Source: Paracamarosporium sp. OC-R06-R3
Lineage: Eukaryota; Ascomycota; Dothideomycetes; Pleosporales; Didymosphaeriaceae
Assembly (NCBI GenBank): GCA_019828545.1
Contig: JACVRA010000166.1
Location: 1 to 64,000 of the forward strand
Direction of reading: 5' to 3'
DNA length: 64,000 bases
The translations under genes were made by a program, and so were the position numbers. Positions 4,031-47,907 of this stretch are shown one piece after another. Below the pieces are notes generated by a model. The model was not told the DNA's origin, did no database searches, and saw only the letters and a program-made list of their open reading frames with translations. Each line of letters opens with the position of its first letter. The stretch's first letter is position 1.

Positions 4031-6107
4031 ATGGGTTCAATCGATCTTCCGCATAATCGCAAAGTGGCTATCGTCACCGGTGCTACGGTACGTCTCTTAA
4101 ATCAGATTCGAAGGTAAGATCAAGTTTCATACAAGGCACCGCTGACATAGCATTCAAAAGAGTGGCATTGGACATTGGGTAGCGGAGCGGCTCCATAAAC
4201 GAGGCTATCAGGTTGCGCTCTGCGGCCGTCGCGAAGAAGAGGGGAAAGCCAACGCAACAGCACTGGACAAGTCTGGAGAGACGGCGATCTTCGTCCAGTG
4301 CGATGTAGCAAGCTGGCCGTCCCAATGTGAGCTTTTCAAAACCGTTTGGGCCAAATGGGGACGCCTTGATATTGTGGTCGCAAATGCCGGCGGCATAGAC
4401 CAACACTCATGGTACAACTTCGCTGGTCGCGAAGCTACTGTCGATGAACTGCCCAGCGAGCCCACCTCCAACTGCCTTGATGTGGATCTACGAGGTGCCA
4501 TGTATAACACAAGACTTGCAACGCACTTCATGAGGCATAACCCGGGTGGAAAGGGTGGAAAGATTATCGTTACTGGGAGCATGATCGGGATATACCCGTG
4601 CCCGACATTTCCAGAGTACTGTGCGGCGAAAGCAGGACTGCATCAATGGGTGAAGACTATCGGTCCAATCTTGCTTCAAAAAGAAAAGATCTCCGTCAAT
4701 TGTGTTATGCCGGGGGGAATCGAAACACCAGCTTTTCCTGGATTTTCCACCGCATTTCTACCAGAACACTTGACGCTGCGCTCAAACCTGTTGGCTGGCT
4801 ACGATCGCTATATCGAGGACACTACGGGGAGAACCGGAGAAACAATTGAAGCGGCGCACGACGTGCTGATCGAATGGGGACATCCCGGATATAAAAGCGG
4901 AGCGTTCGCGCAGAGGACGGAGAAAGTGTACGACCCATGGTTTGAGATGGTGCACGGTGAGAAGAGCGGGCTTCCTGGTGCCATGTCTGGCCCGCCTACA
5001 GAGGAGCGAATCATCGCTGTTACGGGAGCGACGGGCAGCCAGGGTGGTGGTGTAGTCAACGTAATGAAGAAGACTCCAGGGTGGAAAGTTCGGGCGATTA
5101 CGAGAAATACTGGAAGTGATGCAGCTAAGAAACTTGCGTCCCAAGGTGTGGAAGTAGTTCAAGCCAGTTTTGACGACGAGGAGTCGCTGAAGAAGGCTTT
5201 CAATGTAAGTGGTATACAAATAACAATTTGAAAGGCTCATGTAGAGTCTTCACGTACCATTGGGTATCAATACTAACCAGTTTCAGGGTGTCAATGCTAT
5301 CTACGCCGTCACGAACTGGTGGGAGCATCTATTCCAGGGTAAATCGCGCACTGAATCCGGCGAGATCGAAGAGCGCCAAGGCATGACCATAGCACGAGCT
5401 GCCGCAACCATCCCCACACTTGAGCATTATATGTGGTCGACAACACCATCAGCGGCGCGCATGATCAAACCATCAGGCCGCCTGCTAACGCCACACATGG
5501 ACTACAAAGCTAACATCGACGCACGCATTAAGAAAGAGCTGCCGCGCCTGGCTGCGATGACGACGTATCTGTACTTTGGATATTACCCACAAAACATGGC
5601 GTTATTCCCTCTGATCAAGCCAGTTCAGCATGTAAGCTATCCGTTCCGTTTCTAGATCGGTGGGATATGTTTGACTAACGCTGACACCAGCCCGGCAACG
5701 GACAATACATTCAGACGATTCCCTCTAAGCCCGATGCTGTCATATTGCTCTCCGGGGACATGACTGTCAATCCAGGTATATGGACGCGGCAAGTTCTACG
5801 CACCGGGTACAAGGCCTATGGCAAGTATGCCAACGTTGCCCTTGAGAAGTGGACGTTCCAGCAAATGATGGATGAATGGTCGGCTATCACAGGAAAGAAA
5901 GGCGTATACATGGCGACTACTGCGGAAGCATGGACGAATCTATGGGGCGATGCGGGAGCAGAGCTTGCGGCCCAGTTTAAGTTTGGCGAAATGTGCGATC
6001 CTTGGGAAGAGACCGAGAATCATATAAGTCCAGAGGAATTGGGGATCGACCGGAGTGAAGTGGTTGGATTCCGAGGCACGATTGAGGGTTTAAAAAACAT
6101 GTTCTAA
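4031..6107 (+). CDS. SDR-NmrA fusion oxidoreductase
   Basis: Model: join(4031..4087, 4161..5204, 5287..5631, 5691..6107), 620 aa, introns of 73, 82 and 59 bp, all phases closing. The N-terminal half (about residues 1-275) is a classical short-chain dehydrogenase: cofactor motif TGATSGIG split by intron 1, NAGG, a Ser in VTGSMIG, and the catalytic pair Y-C-A-A-K. After SGLPGAMSGPPTEER a second Rossmann domain starts with RIIAVTGATGSQGG, an NmrA-like NAD(P)-binding domain that runs to the end (ITRNTGSDAAKKLASQGVEV, then HPGNGQYIQTIP). Both halves lie in one uninterrupted 1044 bp exon. SDR and NmrA proteins are normally separate genes of about 270 and 320 aa, so this looks like an in-frame fusion. 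The internal Met at 4984 could allow separate expression of the NmrA half. Substrates are unknown. It lies near a BVMO remnant, so an oxidative or secondary-metabolism setting is possible but unproven. Confidence 0.8.
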
Positions 6108-7367
6108 GGCGGCACAATTGAGGAATCTAGTACTATACTACGGGTTCGCTCAGCCACATTGAAGTAAACTGCAAACTCGCCACGAGTCTTGTTTGATGGC
6201 CTCGACCGATATTCTTATTAGTTCTATAGACCGTACGGCCCTCAAGGAAATGGTGACGCTTCGTCCAACACATGGGTTGATTGTTGGCCCACAGTCGTCA
6301 CGTGTTCCTAGGCGATTGTGCACTTGGTCCTCGTACGATGAGTGTGGGTACTATGTCCCTAACGTGGCCATGGAGTCGCCCACGCAATTTCAGGGGCAAG
6401 AAACAAAGGAGTGTAGTACTGAAAGAGGTAATGGCTGGGTGATCGAGCATTTGGAGAGCAGCAGTCTTCGTCAGATACATTCGTAGCGTAGATGTCGAGA
6501 TATTTCACTATTTGAAAACATGGTAATCTGACCTATGCACTCTTCTTTGGTACCACACAGACCTGCTATTAGAATCCATCCTGTTAGAACCAGCAGAAGT
6601 AGCTGCCCACTTCCGGCCCCGGTCTCTGCCTAGACTACTAGTAGACCCGCTCTGCTAGCTACTTCCGCCCCTCTTGGCTTGCCGCTATAACCTCCAACAT
6701 AACGGTTTGCGGTTTTGCTGTTCCGGCTGGGCATATGCCGAGAAACTCAGAAGACTTTGACACCTCACCCCACAACTCGATCTGCATTGACCAACCTTAA
6801 TAGTATGCTCCCGCCGTCCATTATTGCCGCCTCAGGTTTGAGATGTGGTCCGCTACTAAAGATGCTTGATTGATAGGGACATTCCAAGACCACTAGAAAT
6901 GGTTAGGATGCATTGAATGTCCTGTTGCTCAGGCACCAAAAGATACTTATGCCGGGAACTCAAACTGTGAATGGGCACCTTTCTTTTGTCGCACATGGGT
7001 ATACCACTTACGAATCATCCTTTTTCTGCGTGGTTTTGCAGTGGCGGACGAGTTTCTGGTGTTTGAGATGGTTCTCTCAAGCCTTCCGAGGTTACAGTGA
7101 CACCCCGAGAAACGAGGCCTATCATGATTCATCGACATCGGTAACCAAGATACAATCTTAATAGCCGAGTGCTCCGAGCTTTGCTCTTTCGACTCCTGGT
7201 CAAGTGGTCGTGCGCACTCGCGAGTGGGTCACAGTGGGTGCGATAGTTGATAAAACTCTGGGCAACAACTGCGCCTAACCACACAAATGTATCAAGAACC
7301 TACACAGATGCCTAAGTAGAGTGACATTGTCAAAGTAAATTTATATATTGATTAGTCTATGGAATTT

Positions 7368-7458
<91 letters not shown>

Positions 7459-16853: not shown

Positions 16854-19034
16854 TTATAGTACTACTAAACGCTCTCTTACTCCACCTAGAAGCCACTGAA
16901 GCTCGTCTAGCCTCGATCCCTCAATTGATCCTACCCTACGATATGTAGCTGTGTCAGAATCGTTTCGCTGTAAGACCCATGCAAAAAAGCTGAGCTCCAA
17001 GTCATTGTGCGCACCGCGTCTAGCAACATCGTCGTCTACGCCGTTCTCATTGTCCACTTCCTTATCGTTGTCCACTTCTTCTTTGCCTTCCATTTTCTTT
17101 TTGTAATTCTTGTCGTCACTTAGGTGTCTGCGCCAAACAGCAACCGGCACACCGACTAATTCTGGCTCCACGGGCAGCTCCGCTCCATCACCCGTCCTAA
17201 AACCTCGGTCGTCAGTGGTGTACCGCCCTATAGACTCCGAGCTCGCGGGATCAGTGAGCTTGATAACCAGTTCGCGACCCCATACGTGTTCAATGTCGAT
17301 CCCTCGTACGGCGCTGACCATGGTTAAGGTGCCTTTTTCGATGGAACTAAAGGCGTCATCTAGCGGCTTGATATCTGTGCTCAGCAGCTCGCAGCACACA
17401 GCTAGCACATCGGGTTCAATCTTCTCGACGCTGCCGGCCCATTGAGACCACGCCATACATGTATCACGCGGCGCGTCGTCAGGGTACGCTACCCCGTGAT
17501 CGCACGCCGCCCATGACCAAGACGGCCCGGGGTGTTCGGCTTTGTACTGGCTGACAGGGCCGTAGTCGTGCTCAGTACTCCACGCGAGCATTTCCGTGAT
17601 TGGATACGACGACTTCCACAGGAGCCCGTAGACAAATTCCGACGCCCACAGCCCAGCCCAGTACTCGCTTCTTACTTTCTCTGCAATAATGCGCGCCACG
17701 CCTGATATCGCAGCGAAACGGTCCTGCCCCCTGGTCAGGTGTCGGCGGCTGTAATCGGCGACAATGCGGTACCACATGCCCATGAGCGCATAGGCGTCAA
17801 GCTCCTGCAGCGCGGTCTTCGTAACGATAGTAGAGTCCTCGTGGAAAGATTCCAGTGGCAACGGAGAATTGCAGGAGCGTGAGAACCGCGCCGTGTTGCA
17901 CTCATAGAAGAGCTTGCCGTTGGCGAAATAGAGGATCCGCGCAGACAACAGGCGTTCTTGGAGCGTCCAAGCCCTCGAGTTCCAGGGCCAGCCGTCGCCG
18001 GGGTAGAAGTGTTCTTGCCAGGCTCCTCGCTTAGATTGCTCAAAAATCGCAATCGTCGTCGCAGAATCTGCATTGTTCCACTGGACATTGAACTGACAGA
18101 TAGCAGCGTGCGGAGCCCAGGACGACTCTTTTAGGAACCCGCCAAAGGCGTCTTTTACGCACGACGCGATTGTCACCGTGGCGTTCGCATAGACCTCCGG
18201 CATCCGCGCGGCTTCTCTTCGCCAGTCTTCGCCATCCTGCTGAATAATGCATAGGCAGTCAATCCATAGATATTGGAAGCCGAGTGCCCGCACCACTTCG
18301 ACTGTATCGCGAAATGTCTGCGGCAAGTCGGCAATCTCTATTCCCTCTTTAATATGTCTATCGAGGCTGTCTTTGGTAGTAGTGGTCGGCTCGCGGTGGC
18401 CCCAGCAGTGGCTCAGTGCGACGTAGCGGTCAAGGCGCCCGTGTGATACAATAAGACGCACCCGCGAGGAGTCTTTGTCACCTACATCAATCACACGTGT
18501 TGGGAGCGGCCGGTCCCCAAGCGGCGAACACCGCGGATGCTTTTCACCACAAAAGCGCAACCACTCCTTAGCCGCATCTTCAACCGTTGGCCACGGCACG
18601 CTGCGAGTTATAAGCGGGCCCGGGGATCCCACGACCGGAACAACGTAGAACGGCAGCGTCCAGTGTGATTCGTACTTCCTCCAACGATATGTCTCCGCGA
18701 ACTCAATCCCCGGCGTACCAACCGTTGCGCTCCCGTCTGCCGCTATCTCAGTACCCGGACACCCAGCGCACGCGTCAAGATCTTGCCGCTGTCTTTCGAT
18801 AGCGTAGACCACCAGTGGGAAATGAGGTTCGCGCTTGAAGCGAAGGTCCGCAAGCACGCGCGAGCAAAGCGGACAGCCCTCGCCTGCGGCTAGAGTTAGA
18901 GCCTCTAGCGTCGCGTGGTGCGGGATGCTGTTTCGGTTCTTGCCCCGGTGTGTCTTAATGTGGCTGAGATCAGGTTCTGGTTTCTGGAGGATCTTAACGA
19001 AGGGGAAGGTTTGGCAGACGGTACAGAGGGCCAT
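16854..19034 (-). CDS. HET domain protein
   Basis: A single-exon frame. I choose the Met at 19034 (MALCTVCQTFPF, 726 aa) because family members begin with a short Cys-containing segment; the frame is open to 19076. The HET domain, which triggers programmed cell death in vegetative incompatibility, spans about residues 215-365. Its three blocks are all present: YVALSHCWG; LPQTFRDTVEVVRALGFQYLWID followed by CLCIIQQDGEDW; and EVYANATVTIAS. Upstream, GEGCPLCSRVLADL resembles the usual N-terminal CxLC segment. The C-terminal half is typical (RAWTLQERLLSARILYF, then ISGVARII). There is an acidic Asp/Asn/Glu-rich low-complexity insert near residue 650. Family is certain; its role here is unknown, and many Pleosporales carry very many HET genes. 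Confidence 0.9.
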   Translation of the reverse strand: MALCTVCQTFPFVKILQKPEPDLSHIKTHRGKNRNSIPHHATLEALTLAAGEGCPLCSRVLADLRFKREPHFPLVVYAIERQRQDLDACAGCPGTEIAADGSATVGTPGIEFAETYRWRKYESHWTLPFYVVPVVGSPGPLITRSVPWPTVEDAAKEWLRFCGEKHPRCSPLGDRPLPTRVIDVGDKDSSRVRLIVSHGRLDRYVALSHCWGHREPTTTTKDSLDRHIKEGIEIADLPQTFRDTVEVVRALGFQYLWIDCLCIIQQDGEDWRREAARMPEVYANATVTIASCVKDAFGGFLKESSWAPHAAICQFNVQWNNADSATTIAIFEQSKRGAWQEHFYPGDGWPWNSRAWTLQERLLSARILYFANGKLFYECNTARFSRSCNSPLPLESFHEDSTIVTKTALQELDAYALMGMWYRIVADYSRRHLTRGQDRFAAISGVARIIAEKVRSEYWAGLWASEFVYGLLWKSSYPITEMLAWSTEHDYGPVSQYKAEHPGPSWSWAACDHGVAYPDDAPRDTCMAWSQWAGSVEKIEPDVLAVCCELLSTDIKPLDDAFSSIEKGTLTMVSAVRGIDIEHVWGRELVIKLTDPASSESIGRYTTDDRGFRTGDGAELPVEPELVGVPVAVWRRHLSDDKNYKKKMEGKEEVDNDKEVDNENGVDDDVARRGAHNDLELSFFAWVLQRNDSDTATYRRVGSIEGSRLDELQWLLGGVRERLVVL

Positions 19035-20447
19035 GGTTGTAAGATGGCCTTGCATTAAGAACAGTACGATAAACAACAGAGCAAGAAATCAGATAGTGCA
19101 GAAGCGCATGAGAATACGCTGGCAGGAGACGCTATACGGCGGCGACATGCAACCGTGACGTGGGTTTTGAGGGGTCGCGAATTCCAATGAGGACTTAGTT
19201 TCCATGCCGCCATACCTGAGTAGGCTAGCTGTCTGAAGGGTTTGTGTAGGTGGGTGACTTGTGCTGCTGTACCCGCCGCTCACGGCCCGGTCCGCTTTTG
19301 GCACCAAATGAGTAGGGTTAGCGCTTAAACGTAGAGGTATATACTTCTGCAGCCTGTATACCATGCTTACACTACTTTGCACTTATTACATTTTGCCACT
19401 ACTAGTGAGGATGACTGACCTACACCAGCCATATCCTTGTAGATGTTTTGCAATACAGGTACATCGTTCTCGATATCATCCACATTCTGTGTTCAACAGA
19501 AGTCAAAACGAGCGAACGACACAGACATGATGCTTCTATACAGTTGTGTGTGCTCTAAAAACAATCGAGCCTAGTATGAGTCCTCGTATCCAAAGCGAGA
19601 TCCATCGTGTGATGCTCGTCACTCGATCAAGACTACATGTTTGATCATGGCGTACTCCAAAATGGCGGCATTATTGGCGGCTTATACTCATTCAATGTTC
19701 CGATCAGTCTGCGATGAGACACGAAGACCGAGTGATATTAATCTATAAGCAGAGTTTTTACTGGCTTCTAAATAAAGAGATAGGCCCTTTCCAGTTATTT
19801 ACTACTCAAGGATCGTATATGTGTCTCTATCGAAGAGAGAAGCGAAAATAGCCATCAGGGTATCCTGACCCAACGCATAATCCCCAGAAGGTTCCCAAGG
19901 TTCACCACTCGCAAGATACTTCTCATACTTGGAAGCACTCTTCGAAGTGCAATTGGTTTTGAGTAGGTCATGTATTGCGCAAGTGCCGTTCCTTTTCCGT
20001 CAACAAATCATACAAGAGGCCCCTACTTAAGTTAAGGCATTAGGATGTGAAAGCCGGAGTAATGCACTTGTCTACGCTTACTCGCTTATAGTCTTTCAGC
20101 ACTCAGCAAGTTAGATTGTCGGCCGGGTTTCCTACCAGAGTAGATCGAATCTATTTCAGGGTCGTGGGGATTTTAGTGGAAAACTTTCAACCACGCACCT
20201 CATGCTTCTGTGTAAGGAGCCATGAGCATGATCTATGCATTTATTCGGATCAAGACAACAAAAGAAAAGTTTTATTGATGCTAGTATATTCGTAACGACA
20301 TAACTTCAGATATTTGGGTAGAGGCGTATAGGGTTCGAAAACCTCTTTCGAGAAGGCTACAATCCATTCCAATTGCCGGACTGATTGGCGAGCAAGAGGA
20401 CTTTGACCGCCACTGTTATTTCAAAGTAGAACGTTTCTAGTATTGGC
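19035..20447. other. Intergenic, no gene seen
   Basis: About 1.4 kb between the HET start and the 3' end of the RiPP precursor. Open frames are short and without motifs. The HET promoter must lie at its left end. Confidence 0.5.
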
Positions 20448-21261
20448 TTAGTTCTTCAAGCCACCGACGTAGACAAGAGGCGCATAGGTAGCTGCAGCCT
20501 CAGCATCAGCCTCGGCATCCCTCTTCAATCCTCCAACGTAAACAAGAGGAGCGTAGGTAGCCGCAGCATCAGCATCAGCGTCCGCTTCACGCTTCTTCAG
20601 TCCACCAACGTAAACAAGAGGAGCATAGGTGGCTGCCGCTTCCGGATCAGCTTCGGCATCCCTCTTAAGGCCACCGACATACACGAGAGGTGCGTAAGTG
20701 GCTGCCGCCTCTGGGTCAGCTTCTGCGTCCCTCTTCAATCCACCAACATAAACCAACGGAGCATAGGTAGCTGCAGCCTCTGCATCCGCTTCCGCGTCGC
20801 GCTTCTTTAGTCCTCCAACGTACACCAGAGGAGCGTAGGTAGCCGCAGCATCAGTATCAGCGTCTGCTTCACGCTTCTTCAGTCCACCAACGTAGACGAG
20901 CGGAGCATAGGTTGCTGCCGCCTCTGGATCGGCCTCGGCATCCCTCTTCTTTAAACCTCCAACGTACACCAGAGGAGCGTAGGTGGCTGCTGCCTCTGGA
21001 CCGGCTTCAGCCTCCGCAGCCCTCTTGCGTCCGCCCACGTATATATTAGGNNNNNNNNNNNNNNNNNNNNNNNNNNNNNNNNNNNNNNNNNNNNNNNNNN
21101 NNNNNNNNNNNNNNNNCCATAAGTAGAGGCTTCTACCGTAGCGTCTTCCTTCTGGAACACAGATGTCAATCCTGCTAAGGACGAAGTGTCGTGATAGCAC
21201 TTACTGGAAGCGGGGCGGCCGAAGCCACGGAAGCAAGGAGAGCTAACGTAGAAATTCTCAT
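20448..21261 (-). CDS. Multi-core secreted peptide precursor (candidate dikaritin RiPP)
   Basis: Model: complement(20448..21151, 21205..21261); the 53 bp intron is GTAAGT..CAG, and the N gap 21051-21116 lies in exon 2. The N-terminus MRISTLALLASVASA is a clear secretion signal. After the gap come units of 23-24 residues: an acidic Ala-rich spacer (DAEADPEA or EADADADA), the core AAATYAPLVYVGGL, then KR or KKR, the Kex2 cleavage site. Eight cores are identical; the first is a variant (TYG before the gap, PNIYVGG after it). The last ends LKN at the stop. Fungal RiPP precursors of the ustiloxin/asperipin/phomopsin type share this plan: signal peptide, repeated short Tyr-containing core, Kex2 sites. 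The adjacent gene encodes a UstYa-type oxidase, the tailoring enzyme of that class. An alternative is an unmodified secreted repeat peptide. It is not an alpha-pheromone type, since the W-C..C-W core is absent. A TATAAA lies about 90 bp upstream. Confidence 0.85.
20451..21050 (-). repeat. Tandem 69/72 bp coding repeat
   Basis: Nucleotide repeats coding the 23- or 24-residue units of the peptide precursor. Protein identity across cores is complete, but codons differ between units (for example the core Val and Gly codons). This suggests selection on the peptide or gene conversion, and not a very recent duplication. Confidence 0.85.
21051..21116. other. Assembly gap (66 N)
   Basis: A run of N inside the repeat array. 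As printed, the reading frame before and after the gap differs by one base, so the true length is not 66. The flanks are two parts of one core (TYG left, PNIYVGG right), so the missing length should be 1 base plus a whole number of repeat units. Confidence 0.9.
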
Positions 21262-22475
21262 GGTGGAACAGTGAGTCGGGTAATGAGCAGCCTCCGCGAA
21301 GAATTATACAGGGACTGTGGTTGAGGTTGGGCGGCTCTACGTGTCTTACTTTATACTCCGAATCCAAGTACAAACCGAGCTCCTTGAAGAGATACTAGAG
21401 CTAATCCCATAGATATCGCTTGTATCCTTGCGACATGCGAGGGATCTGTAGACCTCCATATGGAAGGTGGGCTGTGGACGGATCTTGGGGGATTGTTAGT
21501 AGGTGTTATTTAGAATGCTACTGGCCAATGCATGCTTGGTGGAGATGCAGTTGGCGATCACCTTCCCACTGCGCGAGGCTTGTCATGTTGGTCTAGATGG
21601 GACTAAGTCGGACTTGATGTGTACCAAGCTTCGCGAACTTTCTATACATCATCGATGACGAGCAACTGTTCATATGGCAGTTGGTCAGGGGAGAATGCTT
21701 ATAAGAACTTAGACGAGACATAGTCAATTGGAGAAACACAAACAACTACGTCAGTGAAAAGTGCAAGGCACTGAATCAGAATATCTGATGTTGTAGCTGA
21801 ACATGTAGGCAATCATCGCTGTGATGTCTTTTACCATTCCTAATGCAGTTACAACATCAATCCTACTCAACTAGTTATACATAGAGTCACCTGACTGTAG
21901 AAATTCATGCTCACCACTTGGTCGCATACGCTAGCACGCACCAGACGACATGACCATGTGCCAATTGAGGAAGGTGGGGTGAATGCCAAGACTATACGGC
22001 CCTCTCCAATCCTACGCCTAGCGAACCTTGTCTATGCCTGGCGAATTTCGATAGCAAGTTTACGATCTGCGCAGGAAGTCTTTTCCTTGAATGGTCAGTC
22101 ACCGTGTTGAAGGATTTTGGTTGTATGAACACAATTTGTATCTTGCTGATGGATGATACATCGGAGCAAGATCGTAGATAGCACTCGCGCGATAAGCACT
22201 GGACCTTGATTCTAGTCCGCCCGCGTGTCCGGCTATCTTTGCAGAAACTCTTGGTCTTCGCTGCGCTCGGTTAACGCCGGTTAAGTGTAAAGGAGACTTG
22301 AAAATTTCCTTCTATCCAATCTGCTTCAGCCTCAAGATTCACACCAAATGCAACATGTCGCACATTGGCTCTCAAAGATCAATCAATACTTCATAGTAGA
22401 GCTCTATTACTTCGTCGTCATCCTTTGAGCACACGCGCCTCAATTCAGGTACACCTTCGTACTCAATTGTACACA
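21262..22475. promoter_or_regulatory. Divergent promoter region, RiPP precursor and UstYa gene
   Basis: A 1.2 kb region with no gene, between two divergently transcribed genes of the candidate cluster, so shared control is possible. A TATAAA on the minus strand at 21350-21355 sits 89 bp before the precursor start. No cluster-specific regulator motif was recognised. Confidence 0.6.
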
Positions 22476-23557
22476 ATGTCTTATAGCGACGACTCTGTGG
22501 ACGAACGCGCAACCTTTCTAGACGAGGAGAAATGGAAACGTAGTTCCGAGAAGCGCGGCCTCTCTTCGCGAACGTTTAAGCTTCTCACCATCTGTAATCT
22601 GGTGTTTTTCTTGGCGACGCTCTCATTGTATGCTTCGTCCTGGATCGAACAGTCCACGAAGAGGATGCTCAACCCGCTATTACGACAGATTCATTCGTAT
22701 TGTAAGTCGTTTCAGAAAAGCGTCGACTTGAGTTCGGCTGTTGATGCGAGCAGCTCCTCTCCTCGACGCGGTCGATCTCCCGCTACATGTAAAGACCATG
22801 AACGGGACGTTGTACCCTAACCACCATCCCTCAGTGGCACGCGGCCCACCAAACGCGGAAAAAGATGCTGTATGGAATGAGTGGGAGATCACACGCGTTT
22901 TTGCCGTTACAGCAGATGAGATCCGCGCCATGGGCAAAGACCCCGTGACAGCCACCAAACTCGAAGTACGCCCTTCCGTCTTCTACACATAACTCCACGT
23001 ATTAAAATGCTCAGGATGAGATTTACGGTCTCGGTGATGATGCATACGCCTCCACATTTGACGTCTACCACCAATTGCACTGCCTAAACATGCTGCGCAA
23101 ACTTGTCTACCCAGACTATTACCCTCGTGCGCGGATGCAATTCCCGCATGCACAAGACCCGAAGACCATGTTCGAAATCCACATGGACCACTGCATTGAC
23201 ATGTTGATGCAAGCGATCCAATGTAGCGGGAACCTCAACCTTATAACTATGCATTGGGTCAACGAAGAAGCTATTCCGTTTCCGGACATGAGCATCAACA
23301 AGCAATGTGTTGCCAACTTTGATGCCTTGACAGAATGGCGGAAGGAACATCAGGTGGATCCGGATAAGTATGTTGCGATGAGTAAGTACAACCGGCCTGG
23401 GCAAATCTGTGATAGGTGCTAACTCGTGATCGTAGAGAAACCTAAGGACGTAAAGCAGTTGCCAGAGGCGGATATGTGGTATAAGTATTTTAGGCCAGAT
23501 AAGGTGAATCCTAACCATATCAATGGTGCAAATCCAGATGAGGACTTCAACCTATAA
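22476..23557 (+). CDS. UstYa-like (DUF3328) oxidase
   Basis: Model: join(22476..22701, 22754..22965, 23015..23381, 23436..23557), 308 aa, introns of 52, 49 and 54 bp, all phases closing. The N-terminus is cytosolic (MSYSDDSVDERATFLDEEKW), followed by one membrane helix (LLTICNLVFFLATLSLYASSW, about residues 37-57), so it is a type II membrane protein. YSPLLDAV and LYPNHHPSVARGPPN follow, both usual in the family. The two H-x-x-H-C motifs that define DUF3328 are intact: YHQLHCLNMLRK and HMDHCIDMLMQAIQC. UstYa-type proteins catalyse oxidative cyclisation or modification of fungal ribosomal peptides such as ustiloxin, and related members act in cyclochlorotine and victorin pathways. Its position head-to-head with the repeated-core precursor strongly suggests that precursor is its substrate. 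Only one copy is present; several known pathways use two. Confidence 0.92.
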
Positions 23558-24573
23558 GAAGTCCCAGCATGCAGAGGCGTGGCTAGCATTCGAATTGTAT
23601 CCGAAAGCTTACACTTGTTCATCCATTGTATTCTTAAATATCGACGAATGCTTTCCGTATGGACTACAAGATCGTGAATCACTATCTAATAAGAAAACGG
23701 ATTACAATATGAAATATAGTTAAAGACCACAATTATAGACGTGAAGCAGCAGTTCCAGATTGCAATCGAACTTGTACTTGCCAAGGTACTTCGAGTGAGA
23801 ATGGCCAGAGTTTCTGAGCGTACAAAGTGCGCGGGTTCCATTATTTTGTTGTTTCTTATACATGCCAAGTTTCCCCGCCATTGAAGGACAGATAAACATA
23901 GAGCAGCTGCAGTGGTGATATGGGCGAGTCACGTTATCGGACCAGCACGCCTCTTGGTCCAGTGCGCTTATTAAACACACAATGAACGCTTGTATAGTTG
24001 GCAATCGTGTGTCTTCTAGTACTGACTATATGACTGGATGACGTCGTTTGTACATCACGCACGTGAAAGCAAAAGCGGCAAACTTATCTTTGACGGGCAC
24101 GTGACAATCAAGAGGACAATTGTTTGACCACAACCGAGCGAGAACTTTTCTTAACTAACGAGAAAGCGACAAGGAGTATATAAATCTCTTCCGATCAACA
24201 AGGGTCCCTAAGGTTCCTTCTGTCGCAGTGGATTAGGCGGTCGGCTGCGTGTTCAACATTCACCGTCACCTCTCACCAACTGTATTACCCGATCGGGTTA
24301 GTCATAACACCAGTGACTTGGCTCTCGATACCTTGCTACTTCATACTCCCTTCCACTCGTGTTCCTTCCCGTTTTCTTAGTCAACCACATACTCAACGCC
24401 GAGCAAGGAGGTGCAACGATCGAGTCGACGGAAAAAAGAACTTTGTCGACTAGGAGAGACGCACGACGCTTGAAATTTTTCCGGGAGAAGGGCGGTCGCC
24501 ACCAGAAGCGAAGGCATCATCAAAGACTTTTCTGTGGGTTCTGTGACCCTATCATCTTCGCAGACAGAACAAG
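23558..24573. other. Intergenic; promoter of ATPase gene
   Basis: No gene. A TATATAAA lies at 24177-24184, about 390 bp before the ATG at 24574, and the stretch after it is pyrimidine-rich, consistent with a core promoter and a long 5' leader. Confidence 0.5.
24177..24184 (+). promoter_or_regulatory. TATA-box candidate
   Basis: TATATAAA upstream of the P-loop ATPase gene. The distance to the start codon implies a 5' leader of about 350 bases. Confidence 0.45.
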
Positions 24574-26720
24574 ATGAACCCAGGAAAACTGGAGGCCCAG
24601 GTTATGTGGAAGCCTCAGGATCCGTGGGTCCCGAAACCGTGGCCTACTTTTGCACCAGACTTGACAGATTCTAGCTTCAATCGTTCCACCAAGGAAGGCC
24701 GTGCTGCATGGGTGCAATGGCACTATTGCACAAGTGCGTTCCGTCCCGACGGCTCATTCAAGGGCTGGAAATGGCTGCAAAATCACTTAGTATCACGCAA
24801 TGGAGGCAAAAAACCCGTTATTCGAGATATCGTGAAGAGTCTCCATTGCAATCAGGATTCCGAGCCCTACTCATTTCCCATGTTGGACGAGGATGGGGCT
24901 CCCTTGTTAGGAAAGATCAAGAAGATCCTACAGAAGAAGCCTGACCTACCTTCCAATACCGTTGATGAGAGTTCTATCTCGAACGCCCGCCCACAAAAGC
25001 TCAGTACACCTCCTGCGCGTTCCAGTCAACCAATTGTTAGGATTACAACTGCGGACGGAGCTGCAGATGACGACTTGTTTCAACGCCAATTAACTCAGAC
25101 GCAATTTTCTGCAGTGGATCGAGAGAGAGATTTATGGAATCCTAAAGGGCAATCCGGTCTTGGCCATGACCGCCCTGCTTATGGCTATCTTCTCAGGTCA
25201 AGAACCGCGAACGATTCTGACAACCGGGAAGAAGAATCTACAGCAGTTAACATAAAGGTTGACTTCAACGCTATGAACACCCTCTTGACGGTAGGTAATC
25301 CCTCCAAAGGTATCGATGCAGATCACCATTCAGAAATTCGCCAAGCGCCACTTATAGATGAGAACCTTTTCAAGGATAACGATACCGCAAAATCCCTTCC
25401 TCAGTACGGGCTAATGGGAACTCACGACCAAAGTCTTGACAATGCAGACTCCAAGCTGTTCTTGAATACCAATATCCCCTTCTCCGCATTCGTATGCGGT
25501 GTCCAAGGCAGTGGCAAATCACACACCACGTCCTGCATCCTCGAGAATTGCCTCATTCCGTCAAGCAATCTTGGCGCACTGCAGAAGCCGCTTTCCGCAC
25601 TCGTGTTTAGTTATGGCCTCTTCACTGGCGATGGCGCTGGTTTCACCATCAGTGAGGCCGCTTTCCTTGGAGCGCCATCTCCGAACATAGGTCGAGCGCA
25701 CGTCAAGAAAATCAACGTTCTCGTCTGCGAGACTAACTTCAAGAGGATCCGCAAGCTTTACGAGCGTCTACCAAATGTCACGGTCACCTGTTTCAAACTC
25801 GACCCGAAAAACCTCGACATTGGTATGTGGTCAGCTGCACATATGACCTAGGCATACTAACATATTCACAGATCTGATGCTCACCCTTATGAACGTGGAC
25901 GAGTCGGGTAGAGTCCCACTATACATGGCCCAGGTCCTGCAAATCATCCGCGGTATGGCCATCACCAACGAAACTTTCGATTACAGGGTGTTCAAGGAAC
26001 ACATCAGACGACAGAAATTTGAGCCCGTGCAAGAGAACATGTTGAAGATACGTCTAGACTTGTTGGAGTCGTTTCTGGACCTGGCGGGCACCAATCGGGA
26101 CAATATGATGTTCAAACCAGGCGAGATTACGATCATGGATATGAGCTGCCCGTTTGTCGATGCAAACACGGCGTGCATCATGTTCAAGTGTGGCCTGCAA
26201 CGATATCTGCAGTCTAAGGCTTCGGCCAAGTTGGTCGTGTTGGATGAAGCTCACAAGGTATGTCTCCCTCCCATTCTTTTAACTCGCTAGCTTTACTGTA
26301 TCTAACACTACACGCACGTAGTACATGTTAGACATTCCGGGTGCGAAAAGCCTCAACGATACGCTGGTCGATACCATTCGTATGCAGCGCCACACTGGTA
26401 CCCGCGTGGTCATCTCCACCCAAGAGCCCACGCTCCTGACGGACTTGATTGCCCTGTGCTCCATCGCCGTTGTTCACCGTTTCTCGTCTCCGGAGTGGCT
26501 CACAGCAATCACGAAGCATATCCGCGTCCCGAAGGAGGAGCGTGAAGCGCTTATGGAACGCATCGAGGGTTTACCAACAGGCACATCTATCGTCTACTCC
26601 CCAAATTCGATCCTTGGCTATAGAGATGGGGAGACCAAAAAAGGCACCGCCACAATGATAAAGGTCAGGATGAGGAAGCGGATTACCGCTGATGGCGGTC
26701 AATCGGTTCTAGCTGTGTAG
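24574..26720 (+). CDS. HerA/FtsK-like P-loop ATPase
   Basis: Model: join(24574..25822, 25872..26257, 26322..26720), 677 aa, introns of 49 and 64 bp, phases closing. Residues 1-280 are polar and carry no known domain (an early Trp-rich stretch around WKPQDPWVPKPWP). The ATPase core starts with Walker A GVQGSGKS (about residue 310) and has a Walker B VVLDEAHKYM (about 540, split by intron 2). It then has RMQRHTGTRVVISTQEPT, in which the Arg and the STQ resemble the arginine-finger and sensor region of HerA/VirD4/FtsK-type pumps. This places it in the additional-strand ASCE ATPases that translocate DNA or act as helicases. Its substrate in fungi is unknown. It lies just beyond the UstYa gene but has no obvious role in peptide maturation. 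Fold class fairly sure, function unknown. Confidence 0.75.
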
Positions 26721-27130: not shown

Positions 27131-29222
27131 CTATGCGCGCGCAATTCGCTCTGCCTGTTCCTTCTGCACATCCTCCGTCCCCTCCGCCAATGTCTCAATC
27201 TTGGTCCTTGCAAACTTCCTTGCCGAGACCTTGTTAGTAAAAAGTATGTCGAGCTCCGCATACGTCCTTCCTTTCGTTTCAGCTGTAATCCTTGTCAGCC
27301 CCGACTTGCCTGCAAAGTGGCACCACTTACGCAGCCGAAACCAAATCCAAGTATTGAACAGCAGGTTCGTGCCCGCCCAGAAAAAAGCTGCTTTCGCGCC
27401 CCAATCCCACGCTAATGGGCTGAGCTGCCGAAAGGAGATAATGTTCACAAAAGCGACGTTGATCGCATTATATACGTTGCGTGCAAGAATGATGGACTTG
27501 GCGCGAAGACGAGTGGATGGCATCTCTGAGACGATAGTGTACACTATGGGACCGATGGAGAAGTCTGCCGTGGCAGAGATGAGGAGCACCATCGTTCCTG
27601 CTGCCCAAGACGTGGCTGTCGTTTGCTCTTTGGGAATGCCCATGCAGCCTGTAATTCTAATTCGCGCTATTAGTTCAAGAAGAGGTAAGCTGCAGGCAGG
27701 GAGAATAACATACATGAGCAGTATGAAGATTACACACATGCCGCTGAACATGAGCGTTTTTCTGCCGACTTTATTCAGCACAAACCAACTTGCGATGGTA
27801 CCTACGGCACCAATGGCACTCTGTCCCCAGCTCAGCTTAAACGCGTCACTGTCAGATATCCCGGCTTGTTCATAAAAGAATGCTGAGAGGCCGCCGAGAG
27901 CAGTGCCAGACATAGTTTGTGCAAGCCAGGTCATGCATACGATTTCGGTACGGCGGAGGTTTACGCCCTTGAAACAGTCCCAATAGCGGGTGCCAGATTG
28001 GACCTGCTTCTCCATTTCATCTGTGTAGAGCATGACTTCTCCCATTTAGAAATAATCACTACACGAAGGAGTAGAAACTCACGAGCCATAGCTGCATCAG
28101 CATCCCTCTGCGAGAAGCCCGAACTCCGTGCTAGACGCTTTAGCGAAGCTTCAGCCTCTGCCTTTTTCCCACTTCTTATACACCACCATGGACTCTCGGG
28201 AGCAAGATACGTCCCGATTGCGATCGGAATGGGCCAGATCCACTGCAACGCAAAGGGGATTTTATAGCCCCATGCATCATCCCTGTGTAGGAACGCTACC
28301 AAGACGCCCGCCTTCATGAATTGGCCGATGATCCAACAAAGGTTGACAAAACACGTTAGATAGTGTCGTAGTGGTACGGGACACACTTCTGCGGCGTAGG
28401 CTGTCGTCATGGTTTGGAACACGCCCCATGGGATGCCCATAAGGAGATTACCGACGAGAAAAATGGTGAGTGTGTGTGCATAGAAGGGGATGAAAATTAG
28501 TCCTGTCAAGGCAATAAGGGCGAGTATGAGGGTCCAGCGATACCCAAAACGGTCAGAAAGAATACCAGCAAACTGTATCATTCCATTAGAGAAGAGCCAA
28601 ATAGCCAAGTGAGACGAGGGGTGGCGTACCTGGAGGCCAATGATCTCGCCGGCGTTACGTGCACCGCTTATACCGTTTTGCCAATCTGGGGGGATCTGGT
28701 ACGTGCCATCTTTGGCAAGAATACCGAATGCGTTCTTGAACGCTGGATATGCTGCATCTGTTGCAGAAATTACCCGGCGTGCCTCGGATTGGTTGGGACC
28801 TTACTCACATGACCCCACGACAGAAGTGTCGTATCCTTCCATGATGAGACAAGAAGACAACACGATAGACCAGCCGATCGCTTTGGGGTACACGCTGAAT
28901 GCGGTTTTGAGAGACATGCCACGCTCTCGTCGATTAGCAGCGTCTGCTTCAGCGACGAGTGTCTACGCAAGAGGGTAGCTCAAAGCTTAGAAGATAAGAT
29001 GACAAAGGAATATACCATAAAGTCGTCCACATTCTCGGCCACTTTTCTTGCGATAGATTCGTCGATGTGGGCGTGATGTTCGTGTGTCTTTTGTTCCGGG
29101 ATCTCTTCGAAGTGCTGCGACTGCTCTTTTGCTCTGTGATAGGTTACCGCTTGCATCTCGAGTGCTTTCATCAGGACGTACAAAGACTCGCTTTGCTTTT
29201 CTACGGACGATATATCTGCCAT
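27131..29222 (-). CDS. MFS sugar transporter, maltose permease type
   Basis: Model: complement(27131..27282, 27331..27656, 27714..28020, 28083..28572, 28630..28757, 28809..28962, 29016..29222), 587 aa, six introns of 48-62 bp, all phases closing. It is a twelve-helix sugar:H+ symporter of the fungal alpha-glucoside (MAL-type) branch: a long cytosolic N-terminus, SLKTAFSVYPKAIGWSIVLS and MEGYDTSV for helix 1, IPPDWQNGISGARNAGEIIG, GILSDRFGYRW, a central PESPWW, NKVGRKTLM, and the C-terminal PETKGRTYAELDILF that is diagnostic of the family (formed only when the last intron is removed). The likely substrate is maltose or another alpha-glucoside, taken up at the plasma membrane. No glucosidase is nearby. 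The N-terminal region is rich in His and Glu. Confidence 0.9.
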
Positions 29223-33880: not shown

Positions 33881-35292
33881 TCAAGCCATGGCATTGGGGT
33901 TGATGAAGCGAGCAAGGAATTTGCGGTTCTTTTCGCGGCGGTTGTTCCTGTTACGGCCGTTGCCCCTATTGCGACCGTTTCCATTGCCAAATCCATTTCC
34001 GTTACCAGTCGCAGCGTTTCCATTACCAGCAGCGGCATTTCCATTACCAGTAGCGGCGTTTCCGTTACCAGTCGCGGCATTACCGTTACCAGTAGCAGCA
34101 TTACCGTTACCAGTAGCAGCATTGCCGTTGTTTCCAGTGGCCGCATTGCCGTTGTTGGCGTTGCCGTTGTTCGCATTTCCATTGTTCACGTTGCCGTTAT
34201 TCGCGTTGCCGTTGTTAGCGTTGCCGTTGTTGGCATTTCCGTTATTGGCATTTCCATTGTTGGCGTTGCCGTTGTTGGCATTGCCGTTGTTCGCGTTTCC
34301 AGTGCCAGCAGCGCCAGTCTGGGTTGCGGCAGGGAGCAGAGCTGGTTCATAGTTAGTAAACACCTCGTGAGAAGATCGTACGGAGGAAAAGCAACGCACC
34401 AGAGACACGGCTAGCATCAGCATTGCCGCCCACCGCGCCAGCAGCAACGTTGGCAGCAATAGCAGCGGGGAGATCCTTCTTGTTCTGGGCAATCTGCTTA
34501 TTGATGCCATCGAGCGTCTGGGCAGTGGTGATGGCTGGGGTAACGAATGAGTCATTGTGCTCAGGGAATGCTGTGAGATGGTTCGAACTTACAATCAGCT
34601 GTAGCGTTGTTTGCACGACCTGTTCCGTCGGTCTGCTGGACAGGGAAACAGCCACCGAAGGGGCCAGCGACAGCGGTGTTACGGCATCTCACAGTGCAAA
34701 TGTCTCCTGTGGACCCACCGACACAGTTGAAGTCGTCAGGCATCTGCACGTTGATGGTGAAGTCGGTAGCCTCGGCTTGCGAGAGGCCGTTCGCGCCAGG
34801 AACATTATTAGAGACTTGGAGCTTGACAAAGCTGGTCGCTGCGTTGCTGGTCACATCGAGGTCACATTCGTATGGACCAGCACCATCGGCGTTGACCTGG
34901 TGGATGGTGACAGCGAGATTCGTGCCTTGCTTGACTGTTGTCACGGCATTGGCGGCAATGGCTTTCTCGGTTTCTCCTCCGACATCGATGTTACCGTCAA
35001 TTTCTGTCCGACCGCAAGAGTTTACGATGTTTTGTTGGATCTCGCTGTCTCTGATAATGGTGGTGTCCTGCTGGCACGGGCTGATGCCCGTGCAGTTGCG
35101 AGCAAGAGAGTCATCAACTGATTCTATGTTAGTCGATACGCCCCTTTAAAGTGCAGTGGTAAATGATCATCGTGGCTTACCTTTGAATCCCTTGCTTTCA
35201 CCAGATTCACCAATAGCCGATTCGATAGTGCCATGAGCATAGGCGGAAGAGAAAACCGCGGCTAGCGCTAGGATAGAGGTCTGGAAATGCAT
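33881..35292 (-). CDS. Egh16-like (DUF3129) secreted protein with Asn/Gly-rich tail
   Basis: Model: complement(33881..34341, 34400..34534, 34593..35117, 35181..35292), 410 aa, introns of 58, 58 and 63 bp, all phases closing. A signal peptide (MHFQTSILALAAVFSSAYA) is followed by HGTIESAIGESGESKGF, the start typical of the Egh16/Mas3/Gas family of appressorium-associated secreted proteins. The core then has SLARNCTGISPCQQDTTIIR, an ECDLDV strand, and paired Cys in DDFNCVGGSTGDICTVRCRN. The last 150 residues are low complexity: ten NANNG-type pentapeptides, then NAATGNG repeats, then a basic end. Members are implicated in host penetration in Blumeria and Magnaporthe; the exact activity is unknown. 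Gene expression during infection is inference from the family. Confidence 0.85.
33974..34297 (-). repeat. Tandem 15 bp coding repeat (NANNG / NAATG units)
   Basis: Ten consecutive NANNG (one NVNNG) units followed by NAATGNG units inside the C-terminal exon of the Egh16-like gene. It also opens artificial long frames on the opposite strand. Unit number is likely to vary between isolates. Confidence 0.9.
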
Positions 35293-45073: not shown

Positions 45074-47907
45074 ATGAAGGGTTTTACCGCTTTCAAGGCG
45101 GCTTCGCTGCTGTCCGCTCTTTGTGAGTCGACACGCTACCCAAGGTTGTGAATCCAACACGTGGCTGACGAGTGTGTAGCTGTCCCGGCTGCTTTGGCCC
45201 AGGACTCATTCACGCATACTGGCACTGGGATTACGTTCTACCGTCAAACCATCTCCACCGGCGAGACTACTGGTGGCCTCGAATGGGGTTACGCTCTGCC
45301 CGAGACCGGATCAGGCAATGCTGAATACATTGGTTACATTGTGAGTGCTTCGGATCGTGTACATGACGCTAGAGCTCTCGTCTGACTTGTGACAGAAAGG
45401 ATCTACACCAAGCGGCAAAGGATGGAGTGGCATCAGTCACGCAGGTGGCATGGCCAACTCTCTCCTTCTTGTAGCCTCGCCCGATGGCACCAATGTCAAG
45501 ACGCAGTTCGTCTGGGCAGGGTGAGTCATGTGCGGCTCTTCTTTCAATGGGTCGTTTGCTAACTCCCTTCAGTGGATACACCGCTCCCGAGGACTACACT
45601 GGCAATGCAACAATCACCCAGATTTCGCACACTGTCAACACCGACAACTTTGAGCTCATCTACCGATGCGAGTGGTGCTGGGTCTGGGACCAGAACGGTG
45701 CAACCGGCTCGCAGATCCCCGACGAGGTTCAAGTCATCGGATGGGCTCAGCACAAGGATCTTCCTTCGAAGCCATGGGTTCAGCACAACAACGGACAGAG
45801 CATCTTCGGTATTCCGGTTGCGGACGCCAGGAACGCCAAGTACTCTGACTGGATCAAGCTACCAGGGGGTACTCCCACTGCCACGCCTACTGCTACTCCA
45901 ACTCCGACATCCTCGACTCCTGCGACTCCGACATCATGCGTTGGCCAGCCCGCTCCTACCGAGGCCTATGATTACATTGTAGTCGGTGGAGGTGCCGGAG
46001 GTATCCCGGTTGCCGATAGGCTTTCTGAATCTGGCAAGAAGGTTCTCCTCATCGAGAAGGGCCCACCATCTCTGGCACGCTTCGGTGGAACCATGAAGCC
46101 TGCTTGGCTCAAGGACTATCAGCTAACGCGATTCGATGTTCCGGGTCTTTGCAACCAGATCTGGGTCGACTCTGCAGGCATTGCTTGCACAGACACTGAT
46201 CAGATGGCTGGGTGCCTCCTCGGTGGAGGAACTGCAATCAATGCTGCTCTTTGGTGGAAGCCTGTTGCAGTCGACTGGGACGCCAACTTTCCCGCGGGCT
46301 GGAAGTCGGCCGACATCAAGTCCTCGGTGGATGCCGTATTCAAGCGTATCCCTGGCACCGATACTCCCTCTTCAGATGGCAAGCGTTACAAGCAGGAAGG
46401 CTTCAACGTGCTTGCCACCGCCTTCACTGCGGACGGCTGGAAGCAGGTCACGGCCAACGACGTCCCCGACCAGAAGAACCGCGTCTTCTCGCACTCTCCA
46501 TTCATGTACGAGGGCGGTCAGAGGCAAGGTCCTCTTGGAACATACCTTGTTACCGCTCTTCAGAGGAGCAACTTCAAGCTCCTCACTAACACCACTGTGA
46601 GGCGTGTTGTTCGAACCGGCAGCAAGGCGACCGGTGTCGAGCTCGAGAGCGGCTACTGCGGCACCGTTAAGCTGAACACCGGTGGACGTGTCATTCTTTC
46701 TGCTGGTGCTTTTGGATCCTCCAAGCTCCTCTTCCGCAGTGGTATTGGCCCAACTGACCAGCTCAACGTTGTCAAGAACAGTGTACAGGATGGTCCCACA
46801 TTCATCAACTCCACCAGCTGGATCAACCTCCCAGTTGGCCAGAATTTGAACGATCACACCAACACTGATCTTGTTGTCCAGCACAACAACGTTTCTTTCT
46901 ACGACTTCTACCAAGCCTGGACGGACCCTATCGCCGCCGACAAGAAGCTGTATCTCGAAAGCCGCGCTGGTATCCTTGCTCAGTCCGCACCTAACATCGG
47001 TCCTCTCGCCTGGGAAGTCATCAAGGGTACGGATGGCATCGACCGTCAATTCCAATGGACTGCTCGTGTTGAGGGCCCCAAGGAAGGTGACAACTTCTCC
47101 ATGACCATCTCCAACTACCTTGGCCGCGGCTCGACATCGCGTGGTGTCGCCACTATCAACGGCGCGCTCAGTATGACTGTTAGCAAGGCCCCTTACCTGT
47201 CGCAGCAAGCCGATACCGACGCTGTGATTGCCAGTTTGAAGAGCATGCAGAAGGCTGTTTCTAAGTTGCCATCGATTACTTGGGAAGTTCCCGCACCCGG
47301 CGTCTCCATCGAAGACTACGTTGCCAGTCTTCCCAAGACTCCCTCTGCTCGCCGTGCAAACCACTGGATCGGTACTGCTAAGGTTGGGACTGACAGCGGT
47401 CTCAAGGGCGGAACTGCCGTTGTCGACACGAACCTGCAAGTCTACGGTACTGACAACATCCACGTTGTCGACGCCTCTATCTTCCCTGGGTAAGCCATCC
47501 ATAGCTCCTCATAATTTGGTAAACATGCTAACCGATGTGCAGTCATATCACTACCAACCCGACCTCGTACATCGTCACTGTTGGTGAACATGCAGCGAAG
47601 AAGATCCTAGCATTGAAGTCTACGGCTGCCGCGGTAGGTGCTTAAGTGCGCTTTCCTGAATGCGATCGAGGGGAGAATGGATAATCGACGCCGTTATACA
47701 CTGGGTCTGCGCCACGTGAGTCTAAAACTGATGTTGTGTTGCTTGCAGGGTGAGCAGTGCGGCGGTATAGGGTGGAAAGGCCCGACCCAGTGTGTAAGCG
47801 GCTACAAATGCAAGGTATGTTTAACGTGCGAGGTCATTCTAGTGCCTTCAGAGCTAACAGACCTACAGAGGCAGAGTGCAAGGAAAAGCATATGTGTCAA
47901 AGCATAA
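45074..47907 (+). CDS. cdh: Cellobiose dehydrogenase with terminal CBM1-like module
   Basis: Model: join(45074..45122, 45180..45340, 45396..45520, 45573..47489, 47543..47633, 47749..47814, 47869..47907), 815 aa, six introns of 52-115 bp, all phases closing. Signal peptide (MKGFTAFKAASLLSALS, then VPAALA). Residues about 20-210 are the haem b cytochrome domain (GITFYRQTISTGETTGGLEW). A Thr/Pro linker (PTATPTATPTPTSSTPATP) follows. Then a GMC flavin dehydrogenase starts at VVGGGAGGIPVADRL, with the catalytic His in ANHWIGTAKVG and Asn in HITTNPTSY. The last exons add GEQCGGIGWKGPTQCVSGYK and a final Cys, a family 1 carbohydrate-binding module. The enzyme oxidises cellobiose and passes electrons through the haem to LPMOs. 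The CBM1 end (CKRQSARKSIC) keeps Cys spacing but lacks the usual Asn, Tyr and Gln. Confidence 0.92.

What the first reader, a model, noticed from the sequence alone, without database searches (positions are those of the whole stretch)
20448..23557. Candidate fungal RiPP locus: repeated-core precursor head-to-head with a UstYa oxidase
The sequence shows a signal peptide followed by at least nine near-identical cores between Kex2-type KR/KKR sites, and 1.2 kb away on the opposite strand an intact DUF3328 protein with both HxxHC motifs. Established knowledge: this pairing defines dikaritin-type RiPPs (ustiloxin, phomopsin, asperipin-2a), where UstYa proteins cyclise Tyr-containing cores. The core here (T-Y-A-P-L-V-Y-V-G-G) is not one I recognise. 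Two Tyr five residues apart offer sites for oxidative cross-linking. Inference: a small two-gene pathway making an undescribed cyclic peptide.
Basis: partly seen in the sequence, partly recalled or inferred. Interest (0 to 1): 0.9.

Follow-up and report, generated by a model that had tools for sequence, protein, structure and literature searches.

The report
Repeat-peptide gene paired with oxidase
A fungal gene encoding eight identical copies of a small tyrosine-containing peptide sits head-to-head with an enzyme gene of the kind that cross-links such peptides, and the same fungus carries several more such pairs, so this is probably one of a set of small pathways for modified peptides.

Summary
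A minus-strand gene (21261 to 20448) encodes a signal peptide on its own exon, then 8 identical TYAPLVYVGG(L) cores and one diverged partial core; a 66-base N run (21051-21116) hides part of the array. The plus-strand UstYa/DUF3328 gene (22476-23557, four exons, 308 aa) has both HxxHC motifs; 1,214 bases separate the start codons. The cores differ at synonymous sites (pS 0.61) but at no amino acid, so the peptide is selected. Of 28 UstYa neighbourhoods examined (of 48), 10 hold a Kex2 repeat precursor, each head-to-head with a UstYa gene; shuffles and the rest of the window give none. Spacers before the core are 40 of 41 xA/xP dipeptides in register, as in alpha-pheromone precursors; better pheromone genes lie elsewhere and no relative of the core was found. 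Most likely: a minimal dikaritin-type RiPP locus whose peptide TYAPLVYVGGL is released by Kex2/Ste13-like trimming and oxidised by the UstYa, probably at Tyr. Cross-linking itself is untested. New member of a known kind; the pheromone-style spacer and the set of head-to-head pairs are the interesting parts.

The parts
21205..21261 (-). Precursor exon 1: signal peptide MRISTLALLASVASAAPLP
   Evidence: Translations; splice donor GTAAGT and signal peptide judged by eye.
21152..21204 (-). Precursor intron, 53 nt, GTAAGT...TTCCAG
   Evidence: Sequence read; inferred, no transcript data.
20448..21151 (-). Precursor exon 2: KEDATVEASTYG, unread gap, PNIYVGGRKR, then 8 units of xA/xP spacer + TYAPLVYVGGL + K(K)R (the last ends LKN), stop at 20448
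21051..21116 (-). 66-base N run inside the repeat array; unread, its length not in frame with its flanks
21262..22475 (.). 1,214-nt region between the two start codons, putative shared promoter
   Evidence: Coordinates; promoter role is inference from the recurring head-to-head layout.
22476..23557 (+). UstYa/DUF3328 gene, exons 22476-22701, 22754-22965, 23015-23381, 23436-23557; 308 aa, N-terminal hydrophobic helix, YSP, HQLHC and HMDHC motifs
   Evidence: exon borders by eye, supported by full-length alignment to relatives of 306-307 aa.

Best explanation
A minimal dikaritin-type RiPP locus of a Pleosporales fungus near Didymosphaeriaceae. The precursor enters the secretory pathway; a Kex2-type protease cuts after K(K)R; a Ste13-type dipeptidyl aminopeptidase removes the in-register xA/xP dipeptides and a Kex1-type carboxypeptidase the basic residues, giving TYAPLVYVGGL (linear [M+H]+ 1152.630). 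The membrane-anchored UstYa oxidises the core, most likely at Tyr2 and/or Tyr7 (minus 2 H per cross-link, [M+H]+ 1150.614 for one). The two genes are transcribed divergently, and the locus is one of at least eleven such precursor-UstYa pairs in this genome. Shown: genes, motifs, repeats, selection on the core, layout, kexin and DPPIV-type genes in the genome. Inferred: processing order, UstYa acting on this core, Tyr chemistry, co-expression, Kex1 (not searched for).
For: Eight cores identical in protein with pS 0.61 against pN 0.008 (the latter only path counting between Leu codons); spacers pS 0.66, pN 0.10. Both HxxHC motifs invariant in the 54-sequence alignment. UstYa relatives at 82-90% in Kalmusia, Paraphaeosphaeria and Paraconiothyrium. 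Kex2-repeat precursors in 9 of 16 stretches of up to 10 kb around UstYa genes and 1 of 12 upstream 3.1-kb stretches, each head-to-head with a UstYa gene; an eleventh (C172) found by another route. 9 of the 10 precursors have Tyr in the core. 0 hits in 80 shuffled stretches and in 54 kb of the window away from the locus. 40 of 41 spacer dipeptides are xA/xP in register. One kexin P-domain match and three DPPIV_N matches in the genome. Literature: 1,758 of 7,878 KEPs have DUF3328 genes within 15 genes, peaking at the next gene (PMC7329392 section 7).
Against: No expression or product data. No second UstYa, tyrosinase or S41-type peptidase was recognised among 39 of 89 window ORFs scanned. Ste13 is said not to be predicted for ustiloxin and phomopsin precursors (PMC6339444 section 16). 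18 of the 28 examined UstYa neighbourhoods show no precursor, and repeat precursors without a UstYa nearby also exist here (C276, C17, C90). One head-to-head precursor (C42) has Trp but no Tyr, so Tyr chemistry is not general. No orthologous precursor was found in the three relatives that have the UstYa, though unannotated genes would be missed and one search scored only the 7,990 candidates sharing most words. The AlphaFold model of the Kalmusia relative (pLDDT 77) gave no solved relative.
Confidence: 0.6

Rival explanations
1. The pair is a RiPP module, but the UstYa does another oxidation (desaturation, hydroxylation or chlorination) and the peptide stays uncyclised.
For: UstYa proteins are reported to be needed for desaturation in phomopsin biosynthesis (passage of PMC10512285) and to perform hydroxylation and chlorination (passage of PMC12048977). 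The C42 pair has a Trp-only core VWLW.
Against: Two unvarying Tyr five residues apart in the core; Tyr in 9 of 10 paired precursors here and enrichment of Tyr in DUF3328-linked KEPs, 65.6% against 38.2%.
Confidence: 0.25
2. The precursor yields a linear pheromone-like signalling peptide and the UstYa is not its enzyme.
For: Kex2 plus in-register Ste13-type spacers, the alpha-pheromone plan; the three database hits at E<=0.01 are proteins named as pheromone or mating-factor precursors.
Against: Those hits rest on the spacer: with spacers masked the single hit at E<=10 is an unrelated protein at E 2.4. Two better alpha-pheromone precursors, with PGQPIG and Cys-type cores, lie on C17 and C90, contigs without a UstYa match. 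Pheromone-annotated KEPs have DUF3328 neighbours in only three reported cases, while the head-to-head layout recurs here.
Confidence: 0.1
3. Chance neighbours: a repeat precursor and one of the many UstYa genes happen to be adjacent.
For: UstYa genes are many here: 75 matches, merged by hand into 48 neighbourhoods.
Against: Leaving out the window pair (chosen for its layout) and C200 (two UstYa genes), the precursors in the ten-kb stretches are head-to-head in 7 of 7, about 6e-5 if the four layouts were equally likely and independent; none in control sequence.
Confidence: 0.03
4. The precursor is decaying or misassembled, so nothing is made from it.
For: The N run is out of frame with its flanks and the core beside it is diverged.
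Against: Eight cores show strong purifying selection and the frame is open to the stop; a gap in a tandem array is a usual short-read assembly effect (inference; whether the run is an assembly gap or a withheld stretch I cannot tell).
Confidence: 0.02

Closest known systems
Asperipin-2a locus (Aspergillus flavus), dikaritin / ust-RiPS type
   Same: Signal peptide, Kex2-separated repeated cores, a single DUF3328 protein, ether bonds at Tyr.
   Different: Different core; four genes were used for its heterologous production (passage), here only two candidates are recognised; pheromone-type spacers here.
Ustiloxin and phomopsin loci
   Same: Repeat precursor plus UstYa-family oxidases.
   Different: Cores YAIG/YVIG and YVIP, 2 and 5 DUF3328 genes and a tyrosinase; no Ste13 processing predicted.
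Ascomycete alpha-pheromone precursors (own-genome C17 and C90; P0001-P0003)
   Same: Signal peptide, Kex2 sites, xA/xP spacers, repeated short peptides.
   Different: Core lacks the PYG[LM]P[IV]G or two-Cys pattern given for Dothideomycetes (passage); a UstYa gene is adjacent.
KEPs with nearby DUF3328 genes as a class (Umemura 2020, PMC7329392)
   Same: Exactly this pairing; 1,758 such KEPs reported. Ste13-type KEPs with DUF3328 are not unheard of: 17 of 76 KEPs related to putative Basidiomycota pheromones had one nearby, and three annotated fungal pheromones did (passages).
   Different: The parts I read do not report gene orientation; at least 11 pairs in this genome compare with a mean of 5.25 KEPs of any kind per Ascomycota strain (standard deviation 4.78).

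Membership tests
Dikaritin (newer definition: KEP precursor, UstYa/DUF3328 as class-defining enzyme) | Secreted precursor with Kex2-separated repeated cores | tested here: met
   signal peptide judged by eye.
Dikaritin (newer definition: KEP precursor, UstYa/DUF3328 as class-defining enzyme) | Adjacent DUF3328 protein with two HxxHC motifs | tested here: met
Dikaritin (newer definition: KEP precursor, UstYa/DUF3328 as class-defining enzyme) | Core cyclised by the UstYa protein | not testable with these tools
   Needs mass spectrometry of wild type and deletion strains.
Dikaritin (older five-gene definition, as cited in PMC12048977) | Tyrosinase, methyltransferase, several DUF3328 and transporter or peptidase genes in the cluster | tested here: not met
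   In 39 of 89 ORFs scanned: sugar-type transporter exons at 27134-28800 and a SET-domain protein at 52379-52975, but no tyrosinase, no second UstYa, no peptidase; the only tyrosinase match on this contig is 43 kb away. The same passage says known dikaritin clusters also lack some of these.
Alpha-type mating pheromone precursor | Kex2 sites with xA/xP Ste13-type spacers | tested here: met
   40 of 41 dipeptides in register.
Alpha-type mating pheromone precursor | Core of the known Dothideomycete pheromone patterns | tested here: not met
   TYAPLVYVGG has neither pattern quoted in PMC6339444; no core relatives found.
Alpha-type mating pheromone precursor | Perceived by the Ste2-type receptor | not testable with these tools
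   One STE2 match exists in the genome but binding cannot be tested.

The most novel reading that the evidence does not exclude
A UstYa-modified, Ste13-trimmed signalling peptide: a pheromone-style precursor captured by an oxidase, a living intermediate between linear mating-type peptides and cyclic toxins, in a fungus that has multiplied head-to-head precursor-oxidase pairs into a repertoire of at least eleven different modified peptides.
Probability: 0.22. Interest if true: 0.7.

Novelty: new member of a known kind. Interest (0 to 1): 0.48.

Why it matters
According to a 2022 review only five dikaritins had been reported (passage of PMC10512285), against 1,758 predicted precursor-DUF3328 associations. 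This locus is about as small as such a pathway can be (one substrate, one enzyme recognised), the spacer register predicts the exact peptide and its mass, and the same genome offers ten sister pairs with other cores, including one without Tyr, so substrate rules of UstYa proteins become testable side by side. If the peptide is both Ste13-trimmed and oxidised, it would link pheromone processing to RiPP chemistry, a transition that PMC7329392 puts forward as a hypothesis.

Full report
What is there. The window is fungal DNA (43.1-Mb assembly in 337 contigs; window = start of contig C54). On the minus strand, ATG at 21261 starts a 57-nt exon coding MRISTLALLASVASAAPLP, a 53-nt intron follows (GTAAGT...TTCCAG), and exon 2 runs to the stop at 20448 (splice sites and signal peptide judged by eye). 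Exon 2 starts KEDATVEASTYG, is interrupted by 66 N (21051-21116), and continues PNIYVGGRKR followed by eight units of spacer, TYAPLVYVGGL and K(K)R; the last ends LKN-stop. The N run is the only one in the window and its length is out of frame with its flanks, so the repeat number is unknown; I did not fill or bridge it, and cannot tell whether it is an assembly gap or a withheld stretch. On the plus strand a four-exon gene (22476-23557) codes 308 aa with a hydrophobic N-terminal helix, YSP, HQLHC and HMDHC; exon joins were read by eye and give a protein that aligns full length with relatives of 306-307 aa. The start codons are 1,214 nt apart, head-to-head.

The core is selected. Among the eight cores each of the ten codons varies synonymously, but no amino acid changes: pS 0.61, pN 0.008 (the five 'nonsynonymous' steps come from counting paths between CTN and TTG Leu codons). 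The ten residues before the core give pS 0.66 and pN 0.10. With synonymous sites this diverged, identical cores are not explained by recent duplication alone; the peptide is what is kept.

How it is probably cut. Between each Kex2 site and the core lie 10 or 12 residues that read as dipeptides, 40 of 41 of them xA or xP, in register up to Thr. That is the Ste13 signature of alpha-pheromone precursors (PMC6339444, passages). It predicts TYAPLVYVGGL as the linear product. The genome has one kexin P-domain match and three DPPIV_N matches; Kex1 was not searched. PMC6339444 (section 16) says Ste13 is not predicted to process ustiloxin and phomopsin precursors; here a Ste13-type precursor sits beside a UstYa. 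The combination is not unheard of: PMC7329392 (passages) mentions 17 of 76 KEPs related to putative Basidiomycota pheromones, and three annotated fungal pheromones, with DUF3328 genes nearby. The C200 precursor of the same genome has the same kind of spacer in 6 of 6 units (EADP, KADP, KANP, DAEA, KADP, KADP).

Probably not the mating pheromone. The protein search with the readable part gave three hits at E<=0.01, all named as pheromone or mating-factor precursors (in which only the 7,990 candidates sharing most words were scored); with the spacers masked the single hit at E<=10 was an unrelated protein at 2.4. The genome has an alpha-pheromone-type precursor on C17 with NCRFPGMPCS and FRRFPGQPIG cores and another on C90 with FRKFPGQPIG, resembling the two-Cys and PYG[LM]P[IV]G patterns quoted for Dothideomycetes, and one Ste2-type receptor match.

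The pair is one of a set. A PF11807 search found 75 matches, which I merged by hand into 48 neighbourhoods, one of them below the cut-off. The 16 were led by the best-scoring hits, so rates are not a random sample. A script that splits every open frame at KR/RR and asks for three or more similar pieces found a precursor in 9 of 16 and 1 of 12; a looser version found none more in the 18 negatives and none in 180 shuffled stretches. Cores: QWYDLTYID (C200), TNFEIDTILDVNRNPDKSSYATTE, TEFAPWYRATNILPASDD, DVDQAFVNVAYFGLKE and WYTDSASGV (all C260), QYHGKNVVKI (C302), VNGSQNYTGPGNG (C110), TYAPLVYVGG (window), KDSDDVWLW (C42), TVDEGFSKIIY (C142). Nine of ten contain Tyr; C42 has Trp only. An eleventh, YARADGVPLSFNIV on C172, came from another search and was missed by the strict detector but seen by the looser one. 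In all eleven the precursor is head-to-head with a UstYa gene; from open frame to first UstYa match the distance is about 0.9 to 2.4 kb, an upper bound because several gene models are partial. C200 has a second UstYa downstream on the same strand. Leaving out the window pair and C200, 7 of 7 precursors in the ten-kb stretches are head-to-head, about 6e-5 if four layouts were equally likely and independent. Controls: 0 hits in the 54 kb of the window outside 18-28 kb and 0 in 80 Markov-shuffled stretches; I had no random loci of this genome. Repeat precursors without a UstYa alongside also occur: C276 (L011; its contig's UstYa match is 65 kb away), C17 and C90 (no UstYa match on these contigs).

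The enzyme. Its closest relatives are in Kalmusia (83%), Paraphaeosphaeria (82%) and Paraconiothyrium (90% over 77% of its length), then about 50-60% in Apiospora, Bisporella and other ascomycetes, which places the fungus near Didymosphaeriaceae by this one protein. H164, H167, C168, H201, H204 and C205 are invariant in the 54-sequence alignment. On a tree the precursor-linked UstYa genes do not form one group (7 changes against 6.9 in shuffles); the supported group around the window UstYa holds four own-genome members, all precursor-linked. The AlphaFold model of the Kalmusia relative (pLDDT 77.1, pTM 0.67) has no recognisable solved relative.

Neighbourhood. Pfam scans of 39 of the 89 longest non-overlapping ORFs, plus the main UstYa exon, show a HET protein at 16857-19088, sugar-type transporter exons at 27134-28800, and genes such as queuine tRNA-ribosyltransferase, WD40/Utp12, SET, RING and UQ_con. 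Oxidoreductases exist farther off: FMO-like (35-841), SDR/NmrA (4146-5228), GMC with CDH cytochrome (45475-47490) and an FAD_binding_4 protein (58644-59996), 15 kb or more from the pair with other genes between; I do not assign them to it. No second UstYa, tyrosinase or S41-type peptidase was recognised; the only tyrosinase match on C54 is at 66173-66774, outside the window. So the best reading is a two-gene module, possibly helped by enzymes elsewhere.

Place in the known. Umemura 2020 (PMC7329392; abstract, passages and section 7 seen) reports 7,878 KEPs, 1,758 with DUF3328 genes nearby, most often at the next position, and almost none among annotated pheromones. By the newer definition of dikaritins (passages of PMC10512285 and PMC12048977) this locus qualifies except for the untested cyclisation. 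It is therefore a new member of a known kind. What stands out is the pheromone-type spacer beside a UstYa and the size and head-to-head layout of the set in one genome; I saw no print on the latter in the listings, which is weak evidence of absence.

Noticed in passing
L010 / L025 (C200:18544-22079): A second repeat precursor (QWYDLTYID x6, xA-xP spacers) lies between two UstYa genes, one head-to-head and one downstream on the same strand.
   Followed up: partly
L038 (C42:9700-19699), precursor at 6567-6950 +: A repeat precursor with Trp-containing cores (SDDVWLWKR) and no Tyr sits head-to-head with a UstYa gene, which hints at chemistry other than Tyr cross-linking.
   Followed up: partly
L014 (C17:150836-151219): One alpha-pheromone-type precursor mixes two core types, two-Cys NCRFPGMPCS and FRRFPGQPIG, while the passage read in PMC6339444 describes the two kinds as separate subgroups of species in Dothideomycetes.
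   Followed up: no
L011 (C276:189083-189478): A ten-unit repeat precursor (GPPSTVITWGKEKR type) with no UstYa match nearer than 65 kb.
   Followed up: no
C260, four pairs at about 38, 146, 217 and 247 kb: Four of the precursor-UstYa pairs, with different cores, lie on one 262-kb contig.
   Followed up: no
window 33994-34297: Adjacent tandem arrays (21-nt and 15-nt units) overlapping a 235-aa minus-strand frame without Pfam match.
   Followed up: no
window 7368-7458: A perfect TTG microsatellite of 30 units.
   Followed up: no
C54:66173-66774, just outside the window: A tyrosinase gene about 43 kb from the pair; too far to assign.
   Followed up: no
window 24547-25848 +: A 434-aa frame with a Walker A-like motif (GVQGSGKSHT, judged by eye) and no Pfam match, the next long frame after the UstYa.
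   Followed up: no
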